Assembly: GCF_024055715.1 (NCBI RefSeq)
Contig: NZ_JAMXMV010000010.1
Location: forward strand, 186,001 to 250,000
Direction of reading: 5' to 3'
DNA: 64,000 nucleotides
Source of the DNA: Actinoallomurus soli
GTDB taxonomy: Bacteria > Actinomycetota > Actinomycetes > Streptosporangiales > Streptosporangiaceae
Shown: positions 2,931 through 16,626 of the stretch, piece after piece
How the letters are laid out: each line of letters starts with the position of its first letter
Position numbering within the stretch: position 1 is the stretch's first letter
Notes under the pieces: model-generated
Told to the model about the DNA's origin: nothing
The model's database searches: none
Seen by the model: only the letters and a program-made list of their open reading frames with translations
Made by a program: the position numbers and the translations under genes

Positions 2931-4796
2931 TCAGGACTCGGCGGCGTCCGCCGAGTGCAGGTAGTGGTCCAGCACCCGGTGGCAGGCGGCGGATCGTTCG
3001 GCCTCCGTGTCGAACGTCCGGGCCTGTTCCGCGGCGTAGACGCGCAGCAGGTCGTGCATGGCGAATCGGCCGGGAGCGCGCTCGGTGATCAGATGAGCCC
3101 GGAACAGTTCGGCGAGCAGCGCCCGTGCCCGGTCCTGCGGAAGGCCGGCCAGGGCGGCCGCCGCCGGGTGGGCGATGTCCCGCCCGGGATGGAGGCTCAG
3201 CAGCCGGAACAACCGGGCCGCTTCAGGAGTGAGCGTGCGATAGGACCCTGAGAAGACGGCTCTGAGGTCCGCGGTCACCTCCCCGGCGTCCAGCGCGTCA
3301 AGGCCCGCCAAGCCGGCGCGCATCTTCCCGGCGAGCAGTGCCAGGGGGAGATCGGGGCGCATGCTCGCGCGGGCGGCGACGATGCTCAGCGCCAGGGGCA
3401 GTCCCCCGCAGTAGGCGAGCAGGTCGGCGACGGCACCCGGCTCCGCCTGAGTCCGGTGTGGACCCAGCCGGCTGTCGAACAACCGGCTCGCCGCGTCATG
3501 GGGCAGGACGTCCAGGGTCATCGGCCGGGCACCGTGTGCGGTGACCAGTCCGGCGAGTTGGTTCCGGCTGGTCACGATCACGACGGACGAGGGGCTGCCC
3601 GGCAGCAGCGGCGCCACCTGAGCGGTGTCCCGGACGTTGTCCACGATGAGGAGCATGCGCTTGTCCGCGATGAGCGTGCGGTACAGCGCGGCCTGCGCGT
3701 CCAGGCTCTCCGGAACCGCCGTGGTCTCCGTGCCGAGGGCGTCGAGGAAGGTGCGCACCGCCGTCTCCGGCGTCATCGGCGGTTCGGATGGATCGAACCC
3801 GCGCATGTCGACGTACAACTGTCCATCGGGGAAGCGGTCCATGTTCCGGTGCGCCCAGTGGAGGGCCAGCCAGGTCTTACCGACGCCCGCGCCGCCGCCG
3901 ATCGCCGAGACGAGGACCGTCCGGCCCGGTCCGCTCCGGCCGCCCAGTGCGCGATCGAGCGCGGCGAGCTCGTCGGTTCGGCCGATGAACGGCGACGGCG
4001 GCGCGGGCAACTGGCGCGGGACGCGCGTGGCGCCGGAGACCGGCGATGCCGGTGGGTCGAGGCCGGGATCGTTGGTCAGGATCTGCCGATGCATGCGCTG
4101 GAGTGCGGCGCTGGGGTCGACGCCGAGTTCTTCGGCGAGCCGGAGCCGGATTCGCTCGTACTCTTCGAGCGCCTCGGCTTGCCGTCCGCTCCGGTAAAGG
4201 GCGAGGAGGATCAGCCCGGCCAGGCGCTCATTCAGCGGATGCCCCGCCGCCAGCGTCAGCATCTCGGGAATCAGCGCGGCGTGCCGGCCCAGCCGTAGAC
4301 AGATCTCGTAGTAGTCCAGGTGCGTCGCCAGCCGTTCGGCCTGGAGGGCGTGCCGCATCTCCGTCAACCACGGGGAGTCGACGTCGGCGAAGGGTTCGCC
4401 ACGCCACTGCGCCAGGGCGAGACCGTGCAACCGGCCCGCTTCGGCGACGTCGCCGCTGGCCCGGGCCCGCGCCGTCAGGGCGCGGAATCGGTGCAGATCG
4501 ACCGCTTCCTCATTGACTTTGAGGACATATCCGGCGGAAGTGCGTTCGATATCGGCGCCGACGGTGGTCGACAGAGCGATACGCAGCCGGGAGAGGTAGC
4601 TGCGCAATGTTCCCGTGGCCCGCTCCGGCGGGTCCTCACCCCAGACACGCTGCGCGAGTCGAGCCGGCGAAACGGGATGGTTGACGTCGACCAGCAGAGC
4701 GGCCAGCACACTTCGCTGCCGCGAATGGCCGACGTCGATCGGCTGAGCACCCGCGCTGACATACGTCTCCCCCAGTATCCCGAGTTCGATCGGCAT
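2931..4796 (-). CDS. SARP/AfsR-family regulator with BTAD and NB-ARC domains
   Basis: 621 residues. The order is an OmpR-like winged-helix DNA-binding domain (about 10-95), a bacterial transcriptional activation domain (BTAD, about 100-245, with the L-R-L-G-R...A-L-I-P-E and L-Y-R-S-G-R-Q-A-E-A-L segments typical of AfsR/DnrI) and an NB-ARC ATPase. The NB-ARC part shows Walker A G-G-G-A-G-V-G-K-T (Lys307), Walker B L-L-I-V-D-N-V and the G-G-L-P-L-A motif. It stops without the TPR domain found in full AfsR; a separate TPR protein is encoded nearby. It is transcribed divergently from the biosynthetic operon across a 327-bp gap, as expected for a pathway activator. The start at 4796 gives a normal SARP N-terminus. 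Confidence 0.92.
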   Translation of the reverse strand: MPIELGILGETYVSAGAQPIDVGHSRQRSVLAALLVDVNHPVSPARLAQRVWGEDPPERATGTLRSYLSRLRIALSTTVGADIERTSAGYVLKVNEEAVDLHRFRALTARARASGDVAEAGRLHGLALAQWRGEPFADVDSPWLTEMRHALQAERLATHLDYYEICLRLGRHAALIPEMLTLAAGHPLNERLAGLILLALYRSGRQAEALEEYERIRLRLAEELGVDPSAALQRMHRQILTNDPGLDPPASPVSGATRVPRQLPAPPSPFIGRTDELAALDRALGGRSGPGRTVLVSAIGGGAGVGKTWLALHWAHRNMDRFPDGQLYVDMRGFDPSEPPMTPETAVRTFLDALGTETTAVPESLDAQAALYRTLIADKRMLLIVDNVRDTAQVAPLLPGSPSSVVIVTSRNQLAGLVTAHGARPMTLDVLPHDAASRLFDSRLGPHRTQAEPGAVADLLAYCGGLPLALSIVAARASMRPDLPLALLAGKMRAGLAGLDALDAGEVTADLRAVFSGSYRTLTPEAARLFRLLSLHPGRDIAHPAAAALAGLPQDRARALLAELFRAHLITERAPGRFAMHDLLRVYAAEQARTFDTEAERSAACHRVLDHYLHSADAAES

Positions 4797-5123: not shown

Positions 5124-6335
5124 ATGAAGCCTCTCTTGGCCGGTAACGCCGTTCGCAACGGTGAGACGTCCGTCGAGCCCCTCGCGCAGCCGTCCCCTGA
5201 GCCGCGTGCGGAGCGTCCCGAGCCGGGAACGGCGGCCCCAGGCGCCGCCGGCACGGCGCGGACACCCGATCGCGCGATCGACACCGGCCGGCTGCCAGAG
5301 GTGAACGAGGTGCTCGGCCGGCTCGGTCTCGGCCGGTTGACGCCCGAGAACGCTCGCGCCTTCCCCGGGCGCAACGACAACTGGAGCGGGCGCACCACCT
5401 CGGGAGAGCAGGTCTTCGTCAAGCGGATCGACGGGCAGGCGGAGAGCGCGGCGCGCCGGCTCCATCGCCTCATCGCCTTCGAACGGGGGAATCCCGGCCT
5501 CCCGGCACCGCGGTGCCTCGGCTGGGACGAAGCCGCGCGCCTGGTGGTGTTCGAGCTCATCCCCGACGCCAGGACCGGCAACGACCTGGCGGCCGACGAG
5601 GCGTTCGACGACGCGCTGGCGCATCGCGCCGGGAGGGTCGTCGGCCGGCTGCACAGCGCCTGGTCCGATCCGGAGGACCTCGACGACTCCCCGCCCGACC
5701 TTCCTCCGGTGCCGTGGTTGCACGCCCTTCCGGATGCGGTGTTCACCGCGTCCAGCGCCGCCGCCCTGGAGGTCTGGCGGCTGTTGCAGGGCGATGACGA
5801 GCTGATCGCGGCCCTCACGCGCATGCGCGAGAAGGAGACGGCCGCCGTGAGGACCGCGACCCATTGCGACCTGCGGCTCGACCAGTTCCTGCTGTCCGCG
5901 TCGGAGCTGTACCTCACGGACTGGGAGGAGTTCCGCCTCGCCGATCCCGCGCGGGACATCGGAGGCTTCGCCGGCGAGTGGCTGTACCGCGCCATCACGG
6001 CCATCCCGGAGAGCGCCCGTTCGGACAGTGGATCGGACGCGCCGCTGACCCACCGGCAGATCCTCAGCGCGGGCGCCCGGGAGATCGAGAGAAGACGGCC
6101 GCTGATCGCCGCCTTCTGGTCGGGCCATCGGGCGGAACGCGGCGCCATCGACGCCGGCCTGGCCGAACGCTCGGCCGCGTTCGCCGGCTGGCATCTGCTG
6201 GACCGGGTCCTCTCCCTGGCGGAGCACACTCCCCGGATCCGGGCCGTGGACCGAGCCGCCTTCGGGATCGGCCGGCGGGTGCTGCTCAACGCCGCCGACG
6301 CGGCGACGACCCTGGGGCTGGGTGATCTTTCATGA
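5124..6335 (+). CDS. APH-fold RiPP kinase (class V lanthionine synthetase kinase, LxmK-like)
   Basis: 403 residues with an aminoglycoside-phosphotransferase fold. The nucleotide-binding Lys lies in Q-V-F-V-K-R; the catalytic loop is H-C-D-L-R-L-D-Q (His247, Asp249) and the metal-binding Asp is in L-T-D-W-E-E (Asp266). In class V lanthipeptides and thioamitides a kinase of this type phosphorylates Ser/Thr of the precursor and a HopA1 protein eliminates the phosphate. The next gene is exactly such a HopA1 protein, overlapping by 4 bp. The first 50 residues are Pro/Ala-rich and probably disordered. GGAG sits 10 bases before the start. An antibiotic-resistance kinase is the alternative, but the cluster context argues strongly against it. 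Confidence 0.85.
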   Translation: MKPLLAGNAVRNGETSVEPLAQPSPEPRAERPEPGTAAPGAAGTARTPDRAIDTGRLPEVNEVLGRLGLGRLTPENARAFPGRNDNWSGRTTSGEQVFVKRIDGQAESAARRLHRLIAFERGNPGLPAPRCLGWDEAARLVVFELIPDARTGNDLAADEAFDDALAHRAGRVVGRLHSAWSDPEDLDDSPPDLPPVPWLHALPDAVFTASSAAALEVWRLLQGDDELIAALTRMREKETAAVRTATHCDLRLDQFLLSASELYLTDWEEFRLADPARDIGGFAGEWLYRAITAIPESARSDSGSDAPLTHRQILSAGAREIERRRPLIAAFWSGHRAERGAIDAGLAERSAAFAGWHLLDRVLSLAEHTPRIRAVDRAAFGIGRRVLLNAADAATTLGLGDLS

Positions 6336-7324
6336 CCGGGCTGCTGGCACCCCGCGTCGAGCGCGTCCTGCCGGAGGTCGAGATCGACGCCGGCCGCCAC
6401 CGCGGCTCCGTCTGCGGCCGGGAGATCCACGCCGCCGACGCGGCCGAGTTCCTGGAGGTCCTGGGCCAGGCCCTCTACCTCGCCTGGCACGTCAGGAACC
6501 CGGCGGCGATCGACGACCGCCCGACCACGCGCCGCGATCCCCTCCTGGAGGAACGCCTTCTCTCGGGGATGCCGCATCGGACGACGAGGGCCCCGGCGAT
6601 CCTTCGGGAGATCCGGGCCGATGGCGAACGGCTCGTCGTCGAGCGGGACGGCGTCCGGGTGCTGAGCGCACGCGAGGCCGTACGGCCGGGGCAGCCTCTC
6701 CAGGTCGGCCGGCCGATCGAGCTACGGGTGCCCGCCGCGCGTCCCGCGCTGTCACCGGGATTCTTCCTCGCCGACGGATCGAACGGCCCCCGGCACGGCG
6801 CCTCGATTCTCCGGATCTACGTCCACGTGACCGGCCCGGCGATGGTGCCCGCGCTGTGGACGGCAGCCCTGGAGCTGCTGGAAGGCGCGGACGTCCGCTA
6901 CCGCGCGAAGATCGTCTCGACCTCTCCGATGTTCGCCCGCAGCGACGGCCTGGTCCTCTACCTCGACGCCGGCGCCGCTCAATCGGTCATCACGGATCTC
7001 CTCCGGCTGGCGGGCCGTACGGCCGGCGTCGGGACGACCACCTCCCTCTTCGCCGAGCCGCTCGGCGATGGCGTGGCCATGGCCTGGGAGCCGTCGGACG
7101 CACGGCGGGGTTTCACCTCGCTGAGCCTCGGCGAGCACCGCGCCCGCGTGGTGGCCACCGGTCTGCTGGCGCACGCGACCTCGCCCGACGCGGCCGACCC
7201 GGCCGCCGCGGTGGCGGCGGCCATGCGCGCGGCGAACATCGACCCGCTCACTCCGGCGCGCAACCTCGACTCGCCTCCCTTCCCCCGGGTGACCTCGCGC
7301 GCCGAGACCCCGGTCGGCGGGTGA
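6332..7324 (+). CDS. HopA1-family phospho-Ser/Thr lyase of the RiPP dehydratase
   Basis: 330 residues. The C-terminal half matches the T3SS effector HopA1 family: I-L-R-I-Y-V-H-V near 160, Y-R-A-K-I-V-S then A-R-S-D-G-L-V-L-Y-L near 190-210, and a late S-L-F-A-E-P-L segment. In the thioamitide and class V pathways, HopA1 proteins remove phosphate from phospho-Ser/Thr to give Dha/Dhb. The start codon overlaps the kinase stop (ATGA at 6332-6335), so the two subunits are likely made in step and probably form a complex. The gene is followed by the three precursor genes. Assignment as the lyase is from family knowledge; individual catalytic residues were not assigned. Confidence 0.82.
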   Translation: MTGLLAPRVERVLPEVEIDAGRHRGSVCGREIHAADAAEFLEVLGQALYLAWHVRNPAAIDDRPTTRRDPLLEERLLSGMPHRTTRAPAILREIRADGERLVVERDGVRVLSAREAVRPGQPLQVGRPIELRVPAARPALSPGFFLADGSNGPRHGASILRIYVHVTGPAMVPALWTAALELLEGADVRYRAKIVSTSPMFARSDGLVLYLDAGAAQSVITDLLRLAGRTAGVGTTTSLFAEPLGDGVAMAWEPSDARRGFTSLSLGEHRARVVATGLLAHATSPDAADPAAAVAAAMRAANIDPLTPARNLDSPPFPRVTSRAETPVGG

Positions 7325-7421
7325 GGCGAGGGCGGTCGGCGGCACCGGACCGCCACGCCCGAAGAGCTTCCGGCCGACCCGGCCGGGATGAAGGAACCAG
7401 CACCGCGAAAGGAGGTGTCTC

Positions 7422-7571
7422 ATGAGCCCGACCGACCTGGTCGCAGGTTACGACCTGCACACCGACGCCAACGAGCTCGGTACGGCGGCCGCCACCGAAG
7501 CTCCGGCGACGTTCACCGCGATCACCATCATCTGTGTCTCGGTCACCTACACGATCGACGTCAGCTGCTGA
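7422..7571 (+). CDS. RiPP precursor peptide 1 (C-terminal Cys)
   Basis: 49 residues, preceded by a very strong ribosome site (AAAGGAGGTG at 7408-7417, 4 bases before ATG). The leader has the block D-L-V-A-G-Y-D-L-H-T-D-A at residues 5-16, then E-L-G-T-A-A-A-T-E, almost identical in the two following genes. The core begins near Thr30 with T-F-T-A-I-T and holds several Ser/Thr and two Cys, at 38 and 49. Cys49 is the last residue, as required for AviCys/AviMeCys formation by a LanD decarboxylase, which the cluster encodes. Strongly hydrophobic core (I-I-C-V-S-V-T-Y). Expected product: a lanthipeptide with one lanthionine-type ring and one C-terminal Avi(Me)Cys ring. Confidence 0.88.
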   Translation: MSPTDLVAGYDLHTDANELGTAAATEAPATFTAITIICVSVTYTIDVSC

Positions 7572-7585
7572 CGGTGAATCGCCTT

Positions 7586-7648
7586 GTGCGGGACCGGGGT
7601 GACGCCGGGAGAGGGTCTCCCGCTCCATCGGATCGCCCGGTCCCGCAC
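7586..7648 (+). terminator. Stem-loop after precursor 1 (attenuator or mRNA stabiliser)
   Basis: GTGCGGGACCGGG at 7586-7598 pairs perfectly with CCCGGTCCCGCAC at 7636-7648. Within its loop is a second 7-bp hairpin, CGGGAGA/TCTCCCG (7606-7612 and 7616-7622). It lacks a U-tract. It begins 14 bases after the precursor 1 stop and could reduce readthrough or protect the upstream mRNA. Confidence 0.6.
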
Positions 7649-7651
7649 CTC

Positions 7652-7695
7652 GCTCCGGCGGGCGGGCCGATGCCGCACCATCCGCCCGCCGGAGC
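7652..7695 (+). terminator. Second stem-loop between precursors 1 and 2
   Basis: GCTCCGGCGGGCGG (7652-7665) and CCGCCCGCCGGAGC (7682-7695) form a perfect 14-bp stem with a 16-nt loop, three bases after the first stem-loop. Two consecutive strong hairpins between members of one precursor family point to different expression of precursor 1 and precursors 2/3. Confidence 0.6.
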
Positions 7696-7727
7696 ACCGA
7701 CCCGCCATCGCCTCCACGGAGGACCTC

Positions 7728-7892
7728 ATGACCGCAACCGATCTGGTCGCGGGTTACGACCTGCACACCGACGCCGACGAACTCGGAACGGCGGCCGCCA
7801 CCGAGATGGCCGCCGACACCTTCACCCTCGTCACCTGGCCCTGCTGTCCCTTCCCCTCGTTCACGGCCGCGGGGATCCTGGACGGCCACTGA
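7728..7892 (+). CDS. RiPP precursor peptide 2
   Basis: 54 residues; ACGGAGGA lies just upstream of ATG 7728. The leader block D-L-V-A-G-Y-D-L-H-T-D-A-D-E-L-G-T-A-A-A-T-E matches precursor 1 except for Asp17. The core starts around Thr31 with T-F-T-L-V-T, then W-P-C-C-P-F-P-S-F-T, and ends in D-G-H. Adjacent Cys39-Cys40 and three Pro set it apart from precursor 1. There is no C-terminal Cys, so the LanD enzyme should not act on it. The gene lies between the tandem stem-loops and precursor 3, with only 22 bp to the latter. Confidence 0.86.
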   Translation: MTATDLVAGYDLHTDADELGTAAATEMAADTFTLVTWPCCPFPSFTAAGILDGH

Positions 7893-7914
7893 TCCGAGCC
7901 GCACGGAGGATTAC

Positions 7915-8070
7915 ATGATCGCAACGGACCTGGTCGCGGGTTACGACCTGCACACCGACGCCGACGAACTCGGGAGGGCGGCCGCCGCCGAGATCGCCGC
8001 CGACTCGTTCACCCCCTCCACCTGGTACGTCTTCTGCACCGACTGCTGCGTGGGGCCCTCCGAGGCCTAG
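7915..8070 (+). CDS. RiPP precursor peptide 3
   Basis: 51 residues with GGAGGA 4-10 bases before ATG 7915. The leader repeats the D-L-V-A-G-Y-D-L-H-T-D-A-D-E-L-G block, with Arg21 where the others have Thr. The core begins S-F-T-P-S-T-W and has three Cys (41, 44, 45), ending C-C-V-G-P-S-E-A. Like precursor 2 it keeps the (T/S)-F-T-x-x-T-W start and a paired Cys but lacks a C-terminal Cys. It sits 22 bp after precursor 2 and is followed by a terminator-like hairpin at 8125-8153. The product probably differs in ring topology from precursor 1. Confidence 0.86.
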   Translation: MIATDLVAGYDLHTDADELGRAAAAEIAADSFTPSTWYVFCTDCCVGPSEA

Positions 8071-8124
8071 GAACGCGCAGCCGCCGGACGCACCCGAAGC
8101 AGTGGTGACCTCATCTCCGCCCGG

Positions 8125-8153
8125 CCGGGCCGCGTGCCGGTCACGCGGCCCGG
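8125..8153 (+). terminator. Terminator-like hairpin after the precursor genes
   Basis: CCGGGCCGCGTG (8125-8136) and CACGCGGCCCGG (8142-8153) form a perfect 12-bp stem with a 5-nt loop. It separates the precursors from the tailoring genes. Partial termination here would keep precursor mRNA in excess over enzyme mRNA. There is no U-tract, which is common in actinomycetes. Confidence 0.65.
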
Positions 8154-8195
8154 TCCATCGGAGCTCCGGTGGATTGCTTTGAAGGGATGTCTGCT

Positions 8196-9155
8196 GTGAA
8201 ATACGGAATCCTCCTGCCATTCATGGCGCATCATCCGGAGCAGATCGCGCCGTTCGCCGCCCTCACGCGGGATGCCGGGGCCGACCGTCTCTGGATGGGG
8301 GAATCCCTCCTTCTGGAGAGTCACCAGGCGTTCGCGTACCTGGCGGGGCGGGGGCTGCGTCCGCCCGTCGGGACCAGCGTGTCGCTGATGCCACTGCGGC
8401 ATCCGTACAAGGCCGCGATCGAGATCCGTTCGATCGCGGCTCTGACCGGGCGGCCGGTGGTCGCCGGCTTCGGGCCGGGCGCGGCCCGCCTGGTGGAGGC
8501 GCTCCGGGGCGCTCCCTACGAGAGCCCGCTCACCGCGACGCGGGAGTACATGACGGCGCTGCGCGCCCTGATCGACGGGCGGCGGTCCCGGTTGCCCGGC
8601 ACGTACGTCCAGCTCCACACCGGGCTGCCGCCCCTCGATCATCCGCCGGTCGAACTCGGACTCGGAGTCCTGCGTCCGGCGATGGCGCGCCTGGCGGGTC
8701 AGGTCGCCGACGTCGCGATCACTTGGCTGACGCCGCCGGCCTACCTGCGCGGGGAGCTCATCCCGGCCCTGCGGGAGGGCGCCGAACAGGCGGGACGACA
8801 GGCACCACGCGTCGTCGCGGTCGTCCAGGTCGCGTCGGCCGCCGCCGCGCGCGACCCGCGCGCGCTCGCCGAGGTCGCGACCCGTGCGCACGTCGCGGGG
8901 CCGCACTACGTGGACATGCTCCGCCGCGCCGGGGTCGACCTCCAGGGCATGAGCCCCCTCGACGTGGGCGCCGCACTCATCCACCACGACCTCTTCATCA
9001 CCGGCTCGCCGGAGACGATCGCCGGTGCTCTCGACCGCTACACGGACCTCGGCGTCGACGAGGTCGTCCTCAACACCGCGGGGGTCGCGCTCGCCGAAGG
9101 ACTCGACGTGGCCTGGGACGAGTGCGCGGCGATCCTGAAGGCGGCGCGGTCATGA
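8196..9155 (+). CDS. LLM-class F420-dependent oxidoreductase (putative dehydroamino-acid reductase)
   Basis: About 319 residues in a luciferase-like TIM-barrel fold: K-Y-G-I-L-L-P-F-M at the start, D-R-L-W-M-G-E-S, then G-R-P-V-V-A-G-F-G-P-G-A and a late F-I-T-G-S-P-E-T-I. In the class V lexapeptide pathway an F420H2-dependent reductase of this superfamily (LanJC type) converts Dha to D-Ala, so the same role is likely here. Three in-frame starts exist: GTG 8169, ATG 8187 and GTG 8196. I chose 8196 because GAAGGGA (8181-8187) has good spacing to it and family members begin with the K-Y-G-I strand. The stop overlaps the next start (ATGA). The cofactor (F420 versus FMN) is inferred from the family. 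Confidence 0.82.
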   Translation: MKYGILLPFMAHHPEQIAPFAALTRDAGADRLWMGESLLLESHQAFAYLAGRGLRPPVGTSVSLMPLRHPYKAAIEIRSIAALTGRPVVAGFGPGAARLVEALRGAPYESPLTATREYMTALRALIDGRRSRLPGTYVQLHTGLPPLDHPPVELGLGVLRPAMARLAGQVADVAITWLTPPAYLRGELIPALREGAEQAGRQAPRVVAVVQVASAAAARDPRALAEVATRAHVAGPHYVDMLRRAGVDLQGMSPLDVGAALIHHDLFITGSPETIAGALDRYTDLGVDEVVLNTAGVALAEGLDVAWDECAAILKAARS

Positions 9156-10090
9156 GATCGAAGACGCACGACCACCCGTACCCGGTGATCGCCGCCTACG
9201 GGACCGACCTCATGCGTACCTGCGTCCTCGACCTGGGAGACGCGGGGTTCGCCTGGATCCGGAGCCCGGGGCCGGCCATGGCCACGCCCCTCCCGGCGCC
9301 CCCGGCGAGCGTCCGCGACCTGATCTCGCGGCTGCCCCGGGACGCCGTGCGGCCGGCCCTTCCCGAGCGCGTCCAGGACGGTGTTCGGTATGACGCGCCG
9401 GGTCCGGTGTCGCTGGCGGGTGCCCTCCTCACGGGTGACGACCCGGCGCGCACCGGCGCCGCACCGCTGCTGAGAAGCGTCGGCCGGACGCTCCGGCGCG
9501 TCCACGAGTCGCCCGTGCCGGCCGACGTCGCCGCGCGCCCGCCCCGCGGGCCCGCCCGTCTCGCCGAGCGGCTCTCCGCGAAGGACGAGGTGGGGCGTAC
9601 GGCGCGGCTGCGGACGCTGATCGACGAGGTCCTCGGCGCGGATCGCCTGTGCCGGGTGTCCACCTGGTGCGAAGGACTCATGCGAACGGAAGGCGCGCCG
9701 GTGCTGCTGCACGGCGGCCCGAGCCTCGGCGCCCTGGTTCCCGATCGTTCGGATCCGGGCCGCGGGGCCCTCTTCACCGGTGAGGACGTGACGCCGGGTC
9801 CGTGGACGTTCGACCTCGGCTGGCTGCTCGGCGAGATCCTGGAGCTGGGCGTCGGGCTCCGGGCGGTCCGGCCCGGCACTCCACCCCCCGGCGACCTCGC
9901 CCGGGCGCTCTTCGCCGGCTACGGGCGGTCGCCGGTGCCGTCCGTCGGACGAGCAGCCGCCGTCCGGATCCTCACGCATGCGTACGACTTCGCCGCCTTC
10001 GCGGGATGGCACGAGGAGTCCCTGCGCCGATCGCTGACGCTCGTCGCGGATCTCATCGACTCCGACGGTGCCGCCGCCCTCACCTGGTAA
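9152..10090 (+). CDS. APH-like protein lacking the catalytic Asp (putative pseudokinase of the cluster)
   Basis: 312 residues; the start overlaps the upstream stop. The layout is that of a small phosphotransferase: the middle reads L-L-H-G-G-P-S-L-G-A (His187) where active APH enzymes have H-G-D-x-x-x-x-N, followed by a metal-binding-like W-T-F-D-L-G-W (Asp221). The catalytic-loop Asp is replaced by Gly189 and the Asn by Gly193. The protein may therefore be an inactive scaffold, a leader-binding subunit or an unconventional enzyme rather than a second kinase. The N-terminal 60 residues show no clear glycine-rich loop. Thioamitide clusters also encode more than one phosphotransferase-like protein. 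The family call comes from the motif pattern and gene context. Confidence 0.65.
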   Translation: MRSKTHDHPYPVIAAYGTDLMRTCVLDLGDAGFAWIRSPGPAMATPLPAPPASVRDLISRLPRDAVRPALPERVQDGVRYDAPGPVSLAGALLTGDDPARTGAAPLLRSVGRTLRRVHESPVPADVAARPPRGPARLAERLSAKDEVGRTARLRTLIDEVLGADRLCRVSTWCEGLMRTEGAPVLLHGGPSLGALVPDRSDPGRGALFTGEDVTPGPWTFDLGWLLGEILELGVGLRAVRPGTPPPGDLARALFAGYGRSPVPSVGRAAAVRILTHAYDFAAFAGWHEESLRRSLTLVADLIDSDGAAALTW

Positions 10091-10095
10091 GGCTG

Positions 10096-12759
10096 ATGAC
10101 AACGGACTCGAACGCCTCCGCGCGGGAGACCACCACAAGGCGGATCACGCTGGCGAACGGCCTGCGCGTGCTGCTGCGACCCGACCGCGGCCGGGCGACG
10201 CTCGGCGTCGGCGTGCACTACGGCGTCGGCTTCCGCACCGAGCCGCCCGGGCGAGCCGGCTTCGCGCACCTCTTCGAACATCTGATGTTCCACCGCGGCG
10301 AGGATGCCGAGGTCGCGTCCCATTTCGGGGAGATCGAACGGGCCGGGGGCACGGCCGACGGCTCGACGCATCAGGATTACACGGAATATCACCAGCACGT
10401 GCCACCCGAGGCCCTGGATCTCGTCCTGCGGCTGGAGGCGGACCGGATGCGCGGACCGCGCATCACCGAGACCGTCCTCCGCGGTCAGGTGAACGTCGTG
10501 AAGGAGGAGATCCGCCTGAGGGTCCTCAACCGGCCCTACGGCGGATTCCCCTGGCCGTTGCTCCCCGCCGTCCTGTACCGGACGTTCCCCAACGCCCATG
10601 ACGGCTACGGCTGTTTCGAGGAGCTGGAGAAGGTCACCCCCCAGGAGGCCTCGGACTTCTTCGACGCCTATTACACCCCGGGCAACGCGGTGCTGACCCT
10701 GGCGGGACGGTTCGACCCCGGCCACGCCGCCGATCTCGTCCACCGTCACTTCGGGGATCTCCCACCGCGGGAGGCGGTCCCGGCCGACCCGCTCGACGAG
10801 CCGCCGCCGGAGGCCGCGATCCGGGCGCACCACGAGGCGCGGATTCCGGCGGCGCCGGCCGTGGCGATCGGTTACCGGGCACCGGATCCGGGCCGGCACC
10901 TCGAGCGCTACCTCGCCCACGTCGTCCTCCAGGACCTGCTCACCGGGGGCCCGGTCGCGCGGCTGCGGCGACGGCTCGACGACCAGGGGATGCAGGTCCA
11001 CGCGCTCGATTCCGGCTGCGGCTTCTTCGGGCCCCTCGACGCCCGTCACCCCGACACCCTTCTCCTGACGGCCGTCCACGAGCCGGCCGTCGAGGCGGAC
11101 CGGATCATCGACGCGCTCGACGCGGAACTGCTCGACCTCGCGGCCCGCGGTCCGTCGGACGCGGAGCTCGCCCGCGCGGTCACCGTACGGGCGGCGGGCG
11201 TTCATCGCGACCACGATCCCGTGGCGGCGCAGGCCCGGGCCGTCGGCAGGCTGGAGATCCTCTTCGGCGACGGAACGCTCCTCGATCGGCTGCCGAGGAG
11301 GTTCGGCGAGGTGAGCGCCGAGCAGGTCGCCGCCGCGGCCGAGTCGCTGCGGCGCGCGCCACGGGCGGTGCTCACCCACGGGCCGACACGTCGGGGAACG
11401 CCCTCTCCGGAATCCCCTCGGCCCGGCGGGCGGCACGACGTGCCCCTCTGGCGCGAGGCGGTCGACCGCAGGCTGCCCGGCGGCCTGCGCGTCGTGGCCG
11501 TACCGGACCGCTCGGCTCCGCTGGTCGAGCTCCGGCTTCACCTCCCGAACGAGATCGCCGGCCCCGCCGACGCCGCGCGCGCCGAGCTCCTCTGCCGTAC
11601 GGTCCTCGGTGGCGCCGGTGGACCGGTCGCCCAGGCCACGGAGACGGCCTTCGGCGACAGCGGAGGTGCGTTGCGGGCCCGCCGGGAACGGGAGTGGATC
11701 GTCTTCTCGGGCCACGCCCGCTCGGACCGCCTGACCACGCTGCTCCGGGTGCTGGCGGAGGCGGTGGCGAACCCGAACGGCGATCGATACGGGCGGGTCG
11801 CCGCCGAGCGCGGCCGCGTGGCCGCGCTGGCGGAGGCCGGGCAGACCCTGCCCGGACGAGTCGGCCAGGCCCTCCTCAACAAGCGGTTCTTCGGCGAGCG
11901 GGCACTGCTGCTCACGCCGCCGAGACCCACCGACCTCCGCACGGTCGCGGCCGATGACGTGCTGCGTTACCACCGGTCCGTCATCCGGCCGCAGTCGGCG
12001 ACCCTGGTGCTGGTCGGTGATCTTCCGCCCGACCGCATGCTCGCCGCGGCCGAGACCGCCTTGGCGGCCTGGGCGCCGTCATCCCGGCCGGACACGGCGC
12101 TCCCGGACGGCCGGCCGCCCGCGGAGCCCGGCATCGAGATCGCCGCCGGTCGCGCGGGCGCCGAACAGAGCCACATCGCCCTCCTCGCCGCGGGCGTCGG
12201 CCTCACGGACCCCGGCGGGCCGGCCGGCCGGCTCGCCGACCTCCTGGTCGGCGGCCGTCCCTCGGCACCCTTGGCCACCGCCGTCCGAGAGCGCCGGGGA
12301 CTCGCCTATCACGTGTCGACCGCCGTCGACGTGGTCCTGGGACGGCCCATCGTCCAGATCCAGGCCGCCACCGCAACCGCGACGACCGCCGAGACGCTCC
12401 ACGCCATCCGGGAACTGCTGGAACGGGCGGTCACGCGACCGCCGGCCGCGGGCGAGATCGCCGAAGCGCGCCGGTACGCGGTCGGCGAGCTGTACCGTGC
12501 CTGCGACTCTCAGGCGTCCCTCGCGACGTGGATCTCGCACATGCTCCGGTGCGGCCACGACACCGCCCGCCTCGAACGTCTGCCGGCGTCTCTGGCCGCC
12601 ACGCCGGCCGAAGACGTCATCCACATGATCGGGGAGCTGTTCCGGCCGGAGCGGTTCACCGGGGTCGTCGAGTGCGACCCCGAGGCGTTGGACGGGCGAT
12701 CGGCCGAACTCCGGTCGTCCTGGCCGGGCCGGCGCCCGGAGCCGGGGGCCGGCGAATGA
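10096..12759 (+). CDS. M16-family zinc metallopeptidase, putative leader peptidase
   Basis: 887 residues in two M16 halves. The N-terminal half has the inverted zinc motif H-L-F-E-H (His58, Glu61, His62) and the third ligand Glu138 in V-V-K-E-E-I-R, spaced 76 residues as in the pitrilysin family. The second half (from about 460) lacks H-x-x-E-H and ends with the R-R-G-L-A-Y segment typical of the M16 C-terminal domain, so catalysis lies in the first half. No signal peptide is seen. Its place between precursor-modifying genes points to removal of the leader or of fragments. M16 peptidases have been reported in class V-type clusters. Start at ATG 10096, 5 bases after the previous stop. Confidence 0.85.
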   Translation: MTTDSNASARETTTRRITLANGLRVLLRPDRGRATLGVGVHYGVGFRTEPPGRAGFAHLFEHLMFHRGEDAEVASHFGEIERAGGTADGSTHQDYTEYHQHVPPEALDLVLRLEADRMRGPRITETVLRGQVNVVKEEIRLRVLNRPYGGFPWPLLPAVLYRTFPNAHDGYGCFEELEKVTPQEASDFFDAYYTPGNAVLTLAGRFDPGHAADLVHRHFGDLPPREAVPADPLDEPPPEAAIRAHHEARIPAAPAVAIGYRAPDPGRHLERYLAHVVLQDLLTGGPVARLRRRLDDQGMQVHALDSGCGFFGPLDARHPDTLLLTAVHEPAVEADRIIDALDAELLDLAARGPSDAELARAVTVRAAGVHRDHDPVAAQARAVGRLEILFGDGTLLDRLPRRFGEVSAEQVAAAAESLRRAPRAVLTHGPTRRGTPSPESPRPGGRHDVPLWREAVDRRLPGGLRVVAVPDRSAPLVELRLHLPNEIAGPADAARAELLCRTVLGGAGGPVAQATETAFGDSGGALRARREREWIVFSGHARSDRLTTLLRVLAEAVANPNGDRYGRVAAERGRVAALAEAGQTLPGRVGQALLNKRFFGERALLLTPPRPTDLRTVAADDVLRYHRSVIRPQSATLVLVGDLPPDRMLAAAETALAAWAPSSRPDTALPDGRPPAEPGIEIAAGRAGAEQSHIALLAAGVGLTDPGGPAGRLADLLVGGRPSAPLATAVRERRGLAYHVSTAVDVVLGRPIVQIQAATATATTAETLHAIRELLERAVTRPPAAGEIAEARRYAVGELYRACDSQASLATWISHMLRCGHDTARLERLPASLAATPAEDVIHMIGELFRPERFTGVVECDPEALDGRSAELRSSWPGRRPEPGAGE

Positions 12760-14165
12760 GCGCCGCACCCGGGCGACCGGCGCCGGATCCGGGACCGGGA
12801 CCGCTGAGCGGCGCGGACGCCCAGCGCGCGGCCGAACTCATCCAGATCATCGCGGAGCGCCTCGCCGACCCGGTGGCCGTCGCCGCGGTATCGACCGCGG
12901 ACCGCACGCCCGCACACGGCGGCTGGGCGGCGACGGGGCTCGCCCGCGGCCACTCCGGTGTCGCGTCGTTCTACGGAACCCTCGCCTGGAGCGACTCACG
13001 CTGGGCCGCCACGGCACACGCGCACCTCCGGAGGGCGGTGGACGCGATCTCATCGGAGCCTTCGGCCGGGCTCGCGCTCGGACCGGCCGCGGTGCTGTCG
13101 GCCGTTCAGACCTGCGGTGCGCGCGAGGGTGACTATGCCGGGTTGCGCCGGAACCTGCTCGGCGCGGTCGCGGGCAGGCTGCGGGAACGGCTGAACGCCT
13201 CCGCCGGTGCCCCCGGCACGGCCGGCGTGTCGGGGCGGGAACACGACCTCATCAGCGGCTGCACCGGAGTCGGGCGGCTGCTGCTGGACGCGGTGGACGA
13301 CGGAACCGCCGCCCACCCCGACACGGTCCCGGCCCTCCGGTCGACGCTGCGGCGTCTCGTACGGCTCACCGAGCCGATCGAGGTGAACGGCCGGACCCGA
13401 CCGGGCTGGTGGACGGCGGCGTCGAAGGGGACGCCCTTCCCGGCCGAGGGCGCGAACGACGTCTTCGAGGTCGGCGTGGCGCACGGCGTCGCGGGGCCGC
13501 TGGCCCTGCTCTCCCTCAGCCTGTCCCGCGGCCACACGGTACGCGGACAGGCCGATGCGATCGAGGTCATGGCCGAATGGCTGGTCGCCCAGGCCCGCCG
13601 GGACGCCCACGGGCCGTACTGGCCCGCCCGGACCGGCGCCGAGCAGGAGCCGGGCGAGGGCGGTTCCCGGTCCACGGCGGCGTGGTGCACGGGGACGGCC
13701 GGAGTGGCCGCCGCCCTGCACCTGGCGGGCGTGGCCCTGGACGACGCCGGCCGGCGAAGCCTCGCCGTCGAGGCGTTGCGGGCCGTCATGGAGCGGGCCG
13801 AGGAGGAACGGCGGCTCGTCGGCCCGACCGTGTGCCACGGCCACGCCGGGCTGGTCCAGGCACTGCATCGCGTCGGTACGGCCGCCCGGGACCCGGCCCT
13901 GCTGGCCGGAGCCCGGCGGATGGCCCTCCGCATGATGGACGAGGCGGATGAGGACGCCCCCTTCGTCTTCCGGCACTCGGTCCCGGACATCGAGGACGGC
14001 AGGGTCACGCGCTGGACCGGCGTGGACGCCGCCGGGATGTACGAGGGCGCGGCGGGCTGTGCCGCGGCGCTGCTGACGGTCACCCCCGGCCACCTGCTCG
14101 GACCCGGACGGCGCGGCACCGACGGGGACGTGGCGGCGTGGGACCGGATCCTGCTGCTCTCGTGA
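12756..14165 (+). CDS. LanC-like lanthionine cyclase
   Basis: 469 residues with the alpha-toroid LanC signatures: W-C-T-G-T-A-G-V with zinc ligand Cys311, C-H-G-H-A-G-L with Cys360 and His361, and earlier G-x-x-G helical repeats (H-D-L-I-S-G-C-T-G-V-G, V-A-H-G-V-A-G-P-L-A). In LanC enzymes these residues hold the zinc that activates Cys thiols for addition to Dha/Dhb. With the kinase and HopA1 lyase it completes a three-subunit lanthionine synthetase. The first 35 residues are Pro/Gly-rich. The start overlaps the M16 stop in ATGA (12756-12759). A LanC-like protein with another role is possible but less likely in this setting. Confidence 0.82.
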   Translation: MSAAPGRPAPDPGPGPLSGADAQRAAELIQIIAERLADPVAVAAVSTADRTPAHGGWAATGLARGHSGVASFYGTLAWSDSRWAATAHAHLRRAVDAISSEPSAGLALGPAAVLSAVQTCGAREGDYAGLRRNLLGAVAGRLRERLNASAGAPGTAGVSGREHDLISGCTGVGRLLLDAVDDGTAAHPDTVPALRSTLRRLVRLTEPIEVNGRTRPGWWTAASKGTPFPAEGANDVFEVGVAHGVAGPLALLSLSLSRGHTVRGQADAIEVMAEWLVAQARRDAHGPYWPARTGAEQEPGEGGSRSTAAWCTGTAGVAAALHLAGVALDDAGRRSLAVEALRAVMERAEEERRLVGPTVCHGHAGLVQALHRVGTAARDPALLAGARRMALRMMDEADEDAPFVFRHSVPDIEDGRVTRWTGVDAAGMYEGAAGCAAALLTVTPGHLLGPGRRGTDGDVAAWDRILLLS

Positions 14166-14245
14166 CACGTCACCGGGCCCGGCGGCCGGCGGGACCCCGG
14201 CTCCCACCAGATGATCCCCCGCCCAGGAAGGCGACGAACACCGTC

Positions 14246-14878
14246 ATGGACGACCACGACCAGACCTCTCCCGGCATGCCGGCCCTGGGGCCGCCACCGC
14301 CGTTCACCGCGGACCGCCTGCTGCTCTTCGGCACCGGCTCCCTCGCCGCGGCGCTGCTGCCGTTCTGGATCAACTGGTTCAGGAACTTCTATCCCGAGCC
14401 GGACCTGCGGATCGTCATCACCCGCAGCGCCGAGCGCTTCGTGTCGCGCGGCGCGCTGGCGCCGCTCATCGGCCGTGACGTCCCGCTGGACACCTGGCCC
14501 GAGCACCCGGGCGCCGACGTCCCGCACGTCCGGTACGCCGAGTGGCCGGACGCGATCGTCGTCTACCCGGCGACCATGCACTTCATCGCCCGGTTCGCGC
14601 TGGGATTCACCGACACCCCGATGCTCTCCGCGCTCCAGTGCACGACCGCCGCGATCGCCGTCGCGCCGACCCTGCCGCCCGGGGGCGAGAACAACCCGGT
14701 GACGCAGCGCCATCTGAAGGACCTCGGAGACCGGCCGAACATCGAGGTCGTGCCGCCCGTACCAGGGCGGAGCGCCTCGTCTGGACGCGGCGGGGGAAAC
14801 GCCGCGCCGCCGCTGCCCGCCGTGCTCGACCGGCTGGAGCGGCTCCGTTCGCGTATCCGGGAAGACGGGAGGGCCTGA
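14246..14878 (+). CDS. LanD-like flavoprotein Cys decarboxylase (HFCD family)
   Basis: About 210 residues. The nucleotide-binding start L-L-L-F-G-T-G-S-L-A-A and the central V-Y-P-A-T-M-H-F-I-A-R-F-A-L-G-F-T-D match the HFCD flavoproteins (EpiD, MrsD, CoaC: P-A-T-A-N-T...A-x-G-I-A-D). These oxidatively decarboxylate a C-terminal Cys of RiPP precursors to an enethiol, which cyclises to AviCys or AviMeCys. Precursor 1 of this cluster has a C-terminal Cys; precursors 2 and 3 do not. An upstream GTG at 14162 overlaps the LanC stop and is an alternative start adding 28 Pro/Arg-rich residues. I prefer ATG 14246, which places the flavin fold after a short tail. Confidence 0.82.
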   Translation: MDDHDQTSPGMPALGPPPPFTADRLLLFGTGSLAAALLPFWINWFRNFYPEPDLRIVITRSAERFVSRGALAPLIGRDVPLDTWPEHPGADVPHVRYAEWPDAIVVYPATMHFIARFALGFTDTPMLSALQCTTAAIAVAPTLPPGGENNPVTQRHLKDLGDRPNIEVVPPVPGRSASSGRGGGNAAPPLPAVLDRLERLRSRIREDGRA

Positions 14879-14881
14879 GCC

Positions 14882-16138
14882 GTGCGCGCACCCGACACCC
14901 CATCCCAGGAGACCGGCGAGGGACCAGCGCCGGCCGGCTCCGGTACGGCGGGCTCCGGTACGGCCGGCCGCGGCTACCGGCCGTCCCGGCTGTTCGACTG
15001 GCTCGACCGGATGCGCCATGATCATCCCGTCTGGCACGATCACCGGCGCGACGTCTGGCACGTCTTCTCCCACGCGGAGGCGCTGACCGTCCTCTCGGAC
15101 TGGTCCACCTTCTCCGTCGCGATGATGGACGGCATCCGGACCCCGGACGGCCTGGAGCTGTTCTACAGCGGGAACTTCTCCTGGATGGACCCGCCGCGGC
15201 ACGGGCGGCTCCGCGGCCTGGTGTCACGCGTGTTCACCCCTCGCATGATCGAAGGGCTCGCGCCGCGCGTCGCGGCCGTCGTCGCCGAACTGCTCGACAA
15301 GGCCGACGGCGGGGGCGCCTTCGAGCTCATCGACGATCTGGCGCATCCCCTACCGGTCGTCATCATCGCCGAGATGCTCGGTGTCCCGGCCGAGGACCGG
15401 GTGCTCTTCCGCCGGTGGGCGGACATCCTGCTGGCCGGGGGCCGCACCGCGCCCGGCACCGGAGACGATGATCTTCACTTGGCGGACATGGAGCCCTACC
15501 TGATCGAGCACATCGAACGAAGGAGGGCGGTGCCGGGCCCGGACCTGATCAGCGGCCTGGTCCGGGCGGAGGTCGAAGGGCGCCGGCTCTCGAACGACGA
15601 GATCGTCGGGTTCACGGGCGCACTCCTGATCGCCGGGCACATCACCACGACGGTCACGCTCGGCAACGCCGTGCTGTGCCTCGACGAGAATCCCGGCGTC
15701 GCCGCGGGACTACGCCGGGATCCCGGGCTCATCCCCGCGGCCGTCGAGGAGGTGCTCAGGAGCCGCCCTCCGTTCACCAGCACCGCCCGCCGTACGACCC
15801 GGGAGACCGAGCTCGCCGGGCGGCGGATACCGGCCGGACGTTTCGTCAACGTATGGCTGGCGTCGGCCAACCGCGATGAGCACCTGTTCGACGCACCGGA
15901 TCGTTTCGACGTCCACCGGCCGTCGAACAGGCATCTCGCCTTCGGGCACGGGATCCACTTCTGCCTGGGCGCACCGCTCGCCCGCCTGGAGACCAGAATC
16001 GCGCTCGAGATGCTGCTGAGCCGCTATCGGGAAATCCGCGTCGCCTCCCCTTCTGAGGTCGAACCTCATGACCAGTGGACGATGATCGGGGCCAAGCGGA
16101 TTCCGATGGTGGTCGAACGAACCGCCACGAAAGTGTAA
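14882..16138 (+). CDS. Cytochrome P450, RiPP tailoring oxidase
   Basis: 418 residues with a GTG start preceded by GGGAGG. The heme-binding loop F-G-H-G-I-H-F-C-L-G has Cys361; the I-helix A-G-H-I-T-T-T lies near 251; an E-E-V-L-R-S-R stretch lies after it. The I-helix has His where many P450s have the acidic residue before Thr. It is a soluble bacterial class I type needing external ferredoxin, and no ferredoxin gene is adjacent. It lies 3 bp after the LanD gene and closes the operon. Hydroxylation or crosslinking of the peptide is inference; the substrate cannot be read from sequence. Confidence 0.88.
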   Translation: MRAPDTPSQETGEGPAPAGSGTAGSGTAGRGYRPSRLFDWLDRMRHDHPVWHDHRRDVWHVFSHAEALTVLSDWSTFSVAMMDGIRTPDGLELFYSGNFSWMDPPRHGRLRGLVSRVFTPRMIEGLAPRVAAVVAELLDKADGGGAFELIDDLAHPLPVVIIAEMLGVPAEDRVLFRRWADILLAGGRTAPGTGDDDLHLADMEPYLIEHIERRRAVPGPDLISGLVRAEVEGRRLSNDEIVGFTGALLIAGHITTTVTLGNAVLCLDENPGVAAGLRRDPGLIPAAVEEVLRSRPPFTSTARRTTRETELAGRRIPAGRFVNVWLASANRDEHLFDAPDRFDVHRPSNRHLAFGHGIHFCLGAPLARLETRIALEMLLSRYREIRVASPSEVEPHDQWTMIGAKRIPMVVERTATKV

Positions 16139-16212: not shown

Positions 16213-16626
16213 ATGAAGCGCACATTCAGCAGGTCCGCATACGCCTGGCGGAGCACGGCCGGGAAGGTCGCGGCGCTCGCGATCGCCGCGACCGGCGCGA
16301 TGGCGCTCGGCCCGGTCACCCTCGCGCAGGCCTCGACATGGGAGGGATGCCCGGACGGCGCGGTCTGCATCTACCCGCAGAATCAGGACAATACCACCAG
16401 TAACCCAGAAGCCGTCTTCTGGAGCTACGGATACCACAACCTCAGCAACGAATACGGGTTGCACCAGATCGCGAATAACCAGACGGGCGGCGCGAGTCTC
16501 GATCTGTGCTATGGCTATAACGGCACGAACTGCACCGTACCCAACGGCCATATCGCCGCTCAGGCGATCGGCGTGAACTACGACTTCACGCCGATCAATT
16601 CCGTTCGCCTCAACCCGTGGCCCTGA
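16213..16626 (+). CDS. Small secreted protein, possible peptidase-inhibitor I36 type
   Basis: 137 residues. AAGGAG at 16202-16207 sets ATG 16213. A Sec signal peptide with a basic N-terminus, a hydrophobic stretch (V-A-A-L-A-I-A-A-T-G-A-M-A-L) and a likely cut after A-Q-A leaves a mature protein of about 95 residues. It begins S-T-W-E-G-C-P-D-G-A-V-C-I-Y-P, the pattern seen in actinomycete I36 inhibitor-like proteins, and has four Cys in all, probably two disulfides. The middle is unusually Asn/Thr-rich and less GC-rich than the neighbours. It lies 74 bp after the P450 and before a strong terminator. A link to the RiPP cluster is unproven. Confidence 0.7.
   Translation: MKRTFSRSAYAWRSTAGKVAALAIAATGAMALGPVTLAQASTWEGCPDGAVCIYPQNQDNTTSNPEAVFWSYGYHNLSNEYGLHQIANNQTGGASLDLCYGYNGTNCTVPNGHIAAQAIGVNYDFTPINSVRLNPWP

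What the first reader, a model, noticed from the sequence alone, without database searches (positions are those of the whole stretch)
5124..16138. Class V-type lanthipeptide cluster with three precursors and a split kinase/HopA1 lyase/LanC synthetase
APH-fold kinase, HopA1 lyase and LanC-like cyclase are separate genes around three precursor genes with one leader, together with an F420-type reductase, M16 peptidase, LanD and P450. The kinase-lyase pair is established in thioamitides and class V lanthipeptides; the combination with a recognisable LanC and this D-L-V-A-G-Y-D-L-H-T-D leader looks unusual and may define a new subgroup.
Basis: partly seen in the sequence, partly recalled or inferred. 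Interest (0 to 1): 0.88.

Follow-up and report, generated by a model that had tools for sequence, protein, structure and literature searches.

The report
Lanthipeptide cluster with two cyclase types
An actinobacterial gene cluster for ring-bearing peptides of a known class has picked up an extra ring-closing enzyme, and its three precursor peptides lack the short motif that relatives use to close the same ring without one, which suggests that the enzyme replaced the motif.

Summary
In detail: 5124-16138 is an intact class V lanthipeptide operon.

The leader is not new (NCBIfam LxmA_leader), but has His at -17, where 116 of 123 distinct precursors have Tyr.

Unusual is the full class Va set (LanK, LanY, LanX, LanD, LanJ, M16) with an intact stand-alone LanC. 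Class Va is published as having no LanC, class Vb as having LanC but no AviCys. Of 100 distinct LxmK clusters examined, 66 have LanX and LanD; only this one also has a stand-alone LanC. That LanC groups with LanCs from outside class V, so it looks independently recruited.

Of 80 distinct class Va precursors with a non-terminal Cys, 79 carry the self-cyclising motif (S/T)(S/T)xxC; here 0 of 3 do, and in LanC-bearing class Vb-like clusters 0 of 16. Best reading: LanD/LanX close the C-terminal AviMeCys ring of A1 and the recruited LanC closes the other rings. It is one cluster, and no product was measured. New variant of a known kind.

The parts
5124..6335 (+). LanK (LxmK-type Ser/Thr kinase of the peptide)
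   Evidence: NF038156 464.5 bits, cut-off 315; LxmK structure 9dk1 E 8e-85; catalytic-loop HCDLRLDQ and TDWEE present; no Pfam family at E up to 1
6332..7324 (+). LanY (HopA1-like phospho-Ser/Thr lyase)
   Evidence: PF17914 129.8 bits; Arg, Lys, Arg, Tyr that I take, by eye and without checking numbers, for CaoY R187/K219/R229/Y236 are kept in the alignment
7422..7571 (+). precursor A1, core TFTAITIICVSVTYTIDVSC, C-terminal Cys with Thr at -5 (core start inferred from the Ala-Pro-Ala end)
   Evidence: NF038146 34.3 bits; Ser/Thr at -5 in 84 of 86 Cys-terminal precursors, A1 included
7728..7892 (+). precursor A2, core with CC, no terminal Cys
   Evidence: NF038146 28.4 bits, cut-off 25; coordinates
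7915..8070 (+). precursor A3, core with C and CC, no terminal Cys
   Evidence: NF038146 37.5 bits
8187..9155 (+). LanJ (F420-type LLM reductase, predicted Dha/Dhb to D-Ala/D-Abu)
   Evidence: PF00296 109.5 bits; a J homologue in 61 of the 66 LxmK clusters with LanX and LanD
9152..10090 (+).
   Evidence: 35% to RosX, 18% to own LanK; E231, H276, D279 invariant in the 20 rows (the Glu in 20 of 21 rows); model pLDDT 92.6, best PDB fold match TvaE 8jsu, TM 0.62
10096..12759 (+). fused double M16 peptidase (leader removal, inferred)
   Evidence: PF00675 and PF05193, two stretches each; HLFEH motif
12756..14165 (+). stand-alone LanC
   Evidence: PF05147 132.3 bits; D164, H243, C311, C360, H361 invariant in 24 of 24 aligned LanCs; 4-bp overlap with M16
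14246..14878 (+). LanD (Cys decarboxylase flavoprotein)
   Evidence: PF02441 48.8 bits; NF033753 CypD 98.6 bits, below its cut-off of 215
14882..16138 (+). cytochrome P450, tailoring (substrate unknown)
   Evidence: PF00067 104 bits; best relative in 44 genomes searched 49%
2931..4796 (-). SARP-type regulator (BTAD plus NB-ARC), possible cluster regulator
   Evidence: PF03704, PF00931
16815..19724 (+). large LuxR-type regulator with AAA domain, possible cluster boundary
   Evidence: PF13191, PF00196 (scanned from 16809)

Best explanation
It is a class V lanthipeptide operon that combines the AviCys machinery of class Va with a LanC cyclase recruited from outside class V. LanK phosphorylates and LanY eliminates Ser/Thr in all three cores, guided by one LxmA-type leader. 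LanD decarboxylates the C-terminal Cys of A1 and LanX joins it to the Thr five residues upstream (Thr15-Cys20) as AviMeCys. The remaining Cys of A1 and the Cys of A2 and A3, which lack the motif that lets relatives close their ring unaided, are closed by LanC. LanJ reduces leftover dehydro residues to D-amino acids, M16 removes the leader, and the P450 adds a further, unknown change. Shown by sequence: gene identities, intact active-site residues, gene overlaps, the motif difference, the different lineage of this LanC. Inferred: every reaction, the assignment of substrates, and that the LanC was gained rather than lost elsewhere.
For: LanX: RosX E220/H269/D272 kept, LanK's HCDLRLDQ reads HGGPSLG, 35% to RosX, TvaE is the top fold match. 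Class Va context: of 100 distinct LxmK clusters (window included) 66 have LanX and LanD. LanC keeps D164, H243, C311, C360, H361 and overlaps M16 by 4 bp. No other of the 66 has a stand-alone LanC; in the listed PF05147 matches of 38 LxmK genomes the other LanC matches near an LxmK lie in frames of 850-1090 aa (four of them Pfam-checked as LanM or LanKC type); 20 further HopA1 loci add none. Motif (S/T)(S/T)xxC: 79 of 80 distinct class Va precursors with a non-terminal Cys, 42 of 43 when alike cores are merged, 0 of 3 here, 0 of 16 in LanC-bearing class Vb-like loci; 12.4 of 83 expected in shuffled class Va cores, at most 25 in 500 trials. Xie 2025 shows that such a motif closes without an enzyme. 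A1 end fits AviMeCys: 84 of 86. LanC lineage: sister to L102 (97/92), apart from the two class Vb-like LanCs placed.
Against: One cluster only: the link of this LanC to motif loss rests on a single case with three related cores. Three random cores of this make-up would lack the motif about 60% of the time (product of the shuffle rates), and shuffled class Vb-like cores carry it in only 2.8 of 16 on average with a minimum of 0, so absence by itself is weak. Eleven class Va precursors end without Cys in clusters without any stand-alone LanC, so A2/A3 need not imply LanC. A2/A3 lack the Ala-Pro-Ala end, and all three leaders have His at -17, so they may be poor substrates. L142 (K, Y, LanC without X or D) could have been a second test, but no precursor was found in it. 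None of the 12 flanking ORFs scanned is a peptide exporter. No product data.
Confidence: 0.6

Rival explanations
1. Ordinary class Va cluster; LanC is a passenger that does not act on these peptides, and the lanthionine rings form spontaneously with help from LanK-LanY.
For: 65 other LxmK clusters with LanX and LanD have no stand-alone LanC in the stretch examined; the Lan ring of rosin forms without an enzyme.
Against: LanC keeps its active-site residues and overlaps the gene before it; the cores lack the self-cyclising motif kept by 79 of 80 relatives.
Confidence: 0.2
2. Division of labour only: A1 is a pure class Va substrate (LanD/LanX), A2 and A3 are the only LanC substrates, so one leader feeds two separate pathways.
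For: Only A1 ends in Cys with Thr at -5; A2 and A3 have clustered Cys and no terminal Cys.
Against: A1 also has a non-terminal Cys9 without the (S/T)(S/T)xxC motif, so it too may need LanC.
Confidence: 0.3
3. A class Vb cluster (LanK, LanY, LanC) carrying leftover AviCys genes.
For: K, Y and C present together; L142 (Longimycelium) has LxmK-type K, Y and LanC without X or D.
Against: The kinases, the leaders (seen in seven loci) and the LanCs (two placed) of the class Vb-like clusters here are of other lineages; LanX and LanD are intact and A1 fits AviMeCys. L142's own LanC falls unresolved among the LanCs outside class V.
Confidence: 0.08
4. A decaying or incomplete cluster: A2/A3 are drifting copies and export genes are missing.
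For: No peptide exporter among the 12 flanking ORFs scanned; A2 scores only just above the leader cut-off.
Against: All frames open, overlaps and ribosome sites intact, catalytic residues intact.
Confidence: 0.1

Closest known systems
Rosin (ros) cluster, Microbispora rosea ATCC 12950, class Va (PMC12291118; locus L128, same stretch as L035)
   Same: three precursors, LanK, LanY, LanD, LanX, LanJ, M16 peptidases; LxmA-type leader; LanX 35% identical with the same Glu/His/Asp
   Different: the published ros gene list has no LanC and no P450, two M16 genes and three ABC transporter genes; the ros precursors seen here carry (S/T)(S/T)xxC
Lexapeptide (lxm) and cacaoidin (cao; Streptomyces cacaoi locus L183), class Va
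   Same: K, Y, X, D, J set; the LxmK and LxmA_leader models take their names from lexapeptide (names)
   Different: class Va is stated to have no LanC; cacaoidin has an N-terminal dimethyl group and a putative methyltransferase (abstract listing), none among the eight cluster enzymes scanned here
Class Vb lanthipeptides (SmoA/SmoC; Pei 2022 not held; summarised in PMC12328550 section 7)
   Same: LanK, LanY and a LanC together
   Different: class Vb has no AviCys; the class Vb-like clusters seen here have long unrelated leaders (seven loci) and a distant LanC (two placed)
   Same: its stand-alone LanC is the nearest relative found (46-47%)
   Different: stands next to a RamC_N/kinase/LanC synthetase, B12 radical SAM and PhyH genes, not LanK/LanY

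Membership tests
class V lanthipeptide | stand-alone LanK (LxmK) | tested here: met
   NF038156 464.5 bits, cut-off 315
class V lanthipeptide | stand-alone HopA1-like LanY | tested here: met
   PF17914 129.8 bits, cut-off 22.7
class V lanthipeptide | (methyl)lanthionine in the product | not testable with these tools
   needs mass spectrometry or NMR
class Va | LanD Cys decarboxylase | tested here: met
   PF02441 48.8 bits; under the CypD equivalog cut-off, 98.6 against 215
class Va | LanX kinase-fold cyclase with Glu/His/Asp and without the kinase catalytic residues | tested here: met
class Va | precursor with C-terminal Cys and Ser/Thr at -5 | tested here: met
   A1 yes; A2 and A3 no
class Va | no LanC in the cluster (as stated in PMC12291118) | tested here: not met
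   LanC 12756-14165
class Vb | LanC present with LanK and LanY | tested here: met
class Vb | no AviCys enzymes | tested here: not met
   LanD and LanX present and open
class Vb | leader and LanC of the class Vb-like lineage seen in this order | tested here: not met
   LxmA leader; LanC apart from L210 and L218
thioamitide | thioamide-forming YcaO/TfuA genes (recalled) | tested here: not met
   no such family among the eight cluster enzymes scanned

The most novel reading that the evidence does not exclude
A hybrid class V pathway in which one leader sends three unlike cores to two unrelated cyclases, a zinc LanC and a zinc-free kinase-fold LanX, and in which a LanC captured from another lanthipeptide class has freed the cores from the self-cyclising (S/T)(S/T)xxC motif that otherwise constrains class Va sequence. 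More broadly: in class V, having a LanC and having the self-cyclising motif may be alternatives.
Probability: 0.5. Interest if true: 0.68.

Novelty: new variant of a known kind. Interest (0 to 1): 0.56.

Why it matters
The 2025 division of class V into Va (LanX, no LanC) and Vb (LanC, no AviCys) would not be exclusive. The cluster offers a natural test of an open question: when does a lanthipeptide need a cyclase and when does its sequence close the ring by itself? The motif is near-invariant in LanC-free relatives and absent both here and in the class Vb-like loci seen, which makes a clear prediction. LanC and LanX in one operon might also allow both ring types to be built on new cores.

Tried and rejected
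Rejected: 'new leader' (all three hit NF038146). Rejected: LanC inherited from the class Vb-like lineage (tree; of the 11 class Vb-like loci only L210 and L218 passed my score and length filter, on long branches, and L142 was unresolved). Rejected: P450 as a shared class V enzyme; a 576-bit profile match in L060 looked close, but that profile was built from the phmmer hits, this one among them, and a direct search of 44 genomes, G056 included, listed nothing for it at E 1e-80. Not supported: precursors without terminal Cys being peculiar to LanC clusters (11 in class Va clusters without a stand-alone LanC). Led nowhere: the first genome-contig scan with LanC confirmed no relative, its patterns being poor; plasmids gave LanC at most 35% in the ten rows listed and LanX in 5 records; the ORFs of Amycolatopsis L149, near in the kinase tree, were listed but not resolved. 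Mended on recount: searches counted some precursors twice because of differing trim points (130 and 91 listed; 82 of 83 with the motif); the deduplicated counts are used. Limits: genes in relatives were found with profiles built here; loci reach about 10-14 kb from LxmK and some end at contig ends; 47 of 127 LxmK relatives were not kept; PF05147 and other long listings were capped; leaders were not found in some loci. Precursors are related, so counts are not independent trials.
Full report
What is there. The window lies in a 9.4 Mb, 60-contig genome. Its operon runs LanK, LanY, A1, A2, A3, LanJ, LanX, M16, LanC, LanD, P450 on the + strand. K/Y, J/X and M16/LanC overlap by 4 bp, X and M16 are 5 bp apart, D and P450 3 bp; LanC and LanD are 80 bp apart. 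A SARP-type and two LuxR-type regulators lie to the left and a large LuxR regulator to the right; none of the 12 flanking ORFs scanned by Pfam is a peptide exporter, though not every ORF was scanned. None of the 7 other genomes of the genus in the survey has an LxmK above the curated cut-off, so the cluster is sporadic.

Family assignment. LanK passes the LxmK model at 464.5 bits (cut-off 315) and matches the solved LxmK (9dk1, E 8e-85), although Pfam gave it no family at E up to 1. LanY passes HopA1. All three precursors pass the curated LxmA leader model, so the leader is a known one. Among 123 distinct precursors found around LxmK genes, the residue at -17 is Tyr in 116, Trp in 3, Cys in 1 and His in 3, the 3 being those of this window. 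Liang 2022 (PMC9486802; sections 6 and 7 and passages read) calls Tyr-17 fully conserved in this leader type.

The missed gene. 9152-10090 has a weak APH match (30.5 bits). In an alignment of 21 such proteins from LxmK loci it is 35% identical to RosX of the rosin cluster and 18% to its own LanK. RosX Glu220, His269 and Asp272, which Xie 2025 found essential (PMC12291118; parts 1-3 of 6 and passages read), correspond to E231, H276 and D279 here; all are invariant in the 20 rows, the Glu in 20 of 21 rows. LanK's HCDLRLDQ loop reads HGGPSLG here. The AlphaFold2 model (pLDDT 92.6) has TvaE, the thioviridamide homologue of LanX, as its first match in the PDB library (E 2.8e-9, TM 0.62; ordinary APH-fold kinases follow). 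It is a LanX, a kinase-fold AviCys cyclase.

Why the combination is unusual. Xie 2025 divides class V into Va (LanK, LanY, LanD, LanX; no LanC identified) and Vb (LanC, no AviCys). I searched 345 genomes of the order with the LxmK model: 36, the window's own included, have one above cut-off. I took 40 other loci from this search (38 above, 2 below cut-off) and the best 80 of 127 named loci. After merging near-identical kinases 100 distinct clusters remain, the window included. LanX and LanD are both present in 66. Only the window also has a stand-alone LanC. One other of the 66 (L049) has a 1087-aa LanM beside it and a second LanC match at its edge that lies in a 962-aa frame; one LanX cluster (L055) has a LanKC-type protein. 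HopA1 occurs in 29 of 394 genomes of a class-wide sample; 20 further loci from 19 of these add no case, the other 10 genomes having been looked at above or.

Where the LanC comes from. Class Vb-like clusters occur in the order: four with K, Y and C, seven with K and a LanY of 771-978 aa; the LanC part of the long LanY was confirmed for four of the seven (three, one). None of the eleven has X or D. The seven have long unrelated leaders. The window LanC is 46-47% identical to one next to a LanKC-type synthetase (L102), and the pair (97/92) sits among LanCs that mostly neighbour ORFs of LanB size; only L103 was checked, and its neighbour is a LanB fragment. The two class Vb-like LanCs that could be placed lie apart on long branches; L142 is unresolved among the others. 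A FastTree of the kinases, with long-branch warnings, keeps the window among the LxmK rows and seven class Vb-like and thioamitide-like kinases apart. LanC was therefore most likely gained by a class Va cluster. D164, H243, C311, C360 and H361 are kept (24 of 24 rows; that these are catalytic residues and zinc ligands is recalled).

A reason for the gain. [quoted passage not shown] Among 87 distinct precursors from LanX-and-LanD clusters other than the window, 80 have a non-terminal Cys and 79 of these carry (S/T)(S/T)xxC; the exception is L132; merged at about 70% likeness, 42 of 43 groups carry it. Shuffled cores give 12.4 of 83 on average, at most 25 in 500 trials. In the window 0 of 3 carry it. 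In the LanC-bearing class Vb-like loci, whose LanC is of another lineage, 0 of 16 distinct precursors carry it (shuffled mean 2.8, minimum 0). Absence alone is not improbable (about 60% for three such cores); the point is that relatives without LanC hardly ever do without the motif. The precursors are related and the window is one event.

Predicted chemistry. A1 (TFTAITIICVSVTYTIDVSC) ends in Cys20 with Thr15 five residues before; 84 of 86 Cys-terminal precursors have Thr or Ser there (array loci left out). It is the only candidate of the three for LanD and LanX. A2 and A3 have clustered Cys and no terminal Cys, and lack the Ala-Pro-Ala end of the leader. I propose that LanC closes Cys9 of A1 and the rings of A2 and A3. 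All reactions are inference.

Literature. The listings, searches of an open-licence library, show no title or abstract start that reports a class V cluster with LanC plus LanX/LanD; apart from the papers named here I read none of them (of Cheng 2024, PMC11162475, passages). Pei 2022, which reports class V clusters with LanC (over 240, recalled), is not held; a review section was read instead (PMC12328550). Such a hybrid could be in its list.

Verdict. Observation confirmed and enlarged; interpretation partly supported; a new variant of a known kind, with a sharp experimental test. The recount changed counts, not odds.

Noticed in passing
Dehydration and F420 reduction could give alternating D/L peptides, like a ribosomal gramicidin. 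G211 and G043 have a LanM within about 5 kb by Pfam, G042 a LanC match in an 881-aa frame. One paper search listed nothing like it.
   Followed up: partly
L206-L212: Class Vb-like clusters with a LanY of 771-978 aa (LanC part confirmed in four of seven) and precursors of about 100 residues with long leaders and cores ending in CSxxCC.
   Followed up: partly
L190, L192, L193 (Allokutzneria, Solihabitans): LanK-LanY-LanX without detected LanD; precursors of L190 and L193 end in TTTLIFSC plus a short tail, that of L192 in GCGNAND. A LanX without a Cys decarboxylase would lack its enethiol substrate.
   Followed up: no
L102 (G044): Stand-alone LanC beside a LanKC-type synthetase, B12 radical SAM, PhyH and GNAT genes, with a multi-Cys small ORF; nearest relative found of the window LanC.
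   Followed up: partly
window 16213-16617: Small exported-looking protein right after the P450, no Pfam match at E 0.001.
   Followed up: no
L049 and L055: LanX clusters directly beside a LanM (L049) or a LanKC-type synthetase (L055).
   Followed up: no
window 5124-6335: A strong LxmK by NCBIfam gets no Pfam match at E up to 1, while the pseudo-kinase LanX does match PF01636; Pfam alone would point to the wrong gene as the kinase.
   Followed up: no
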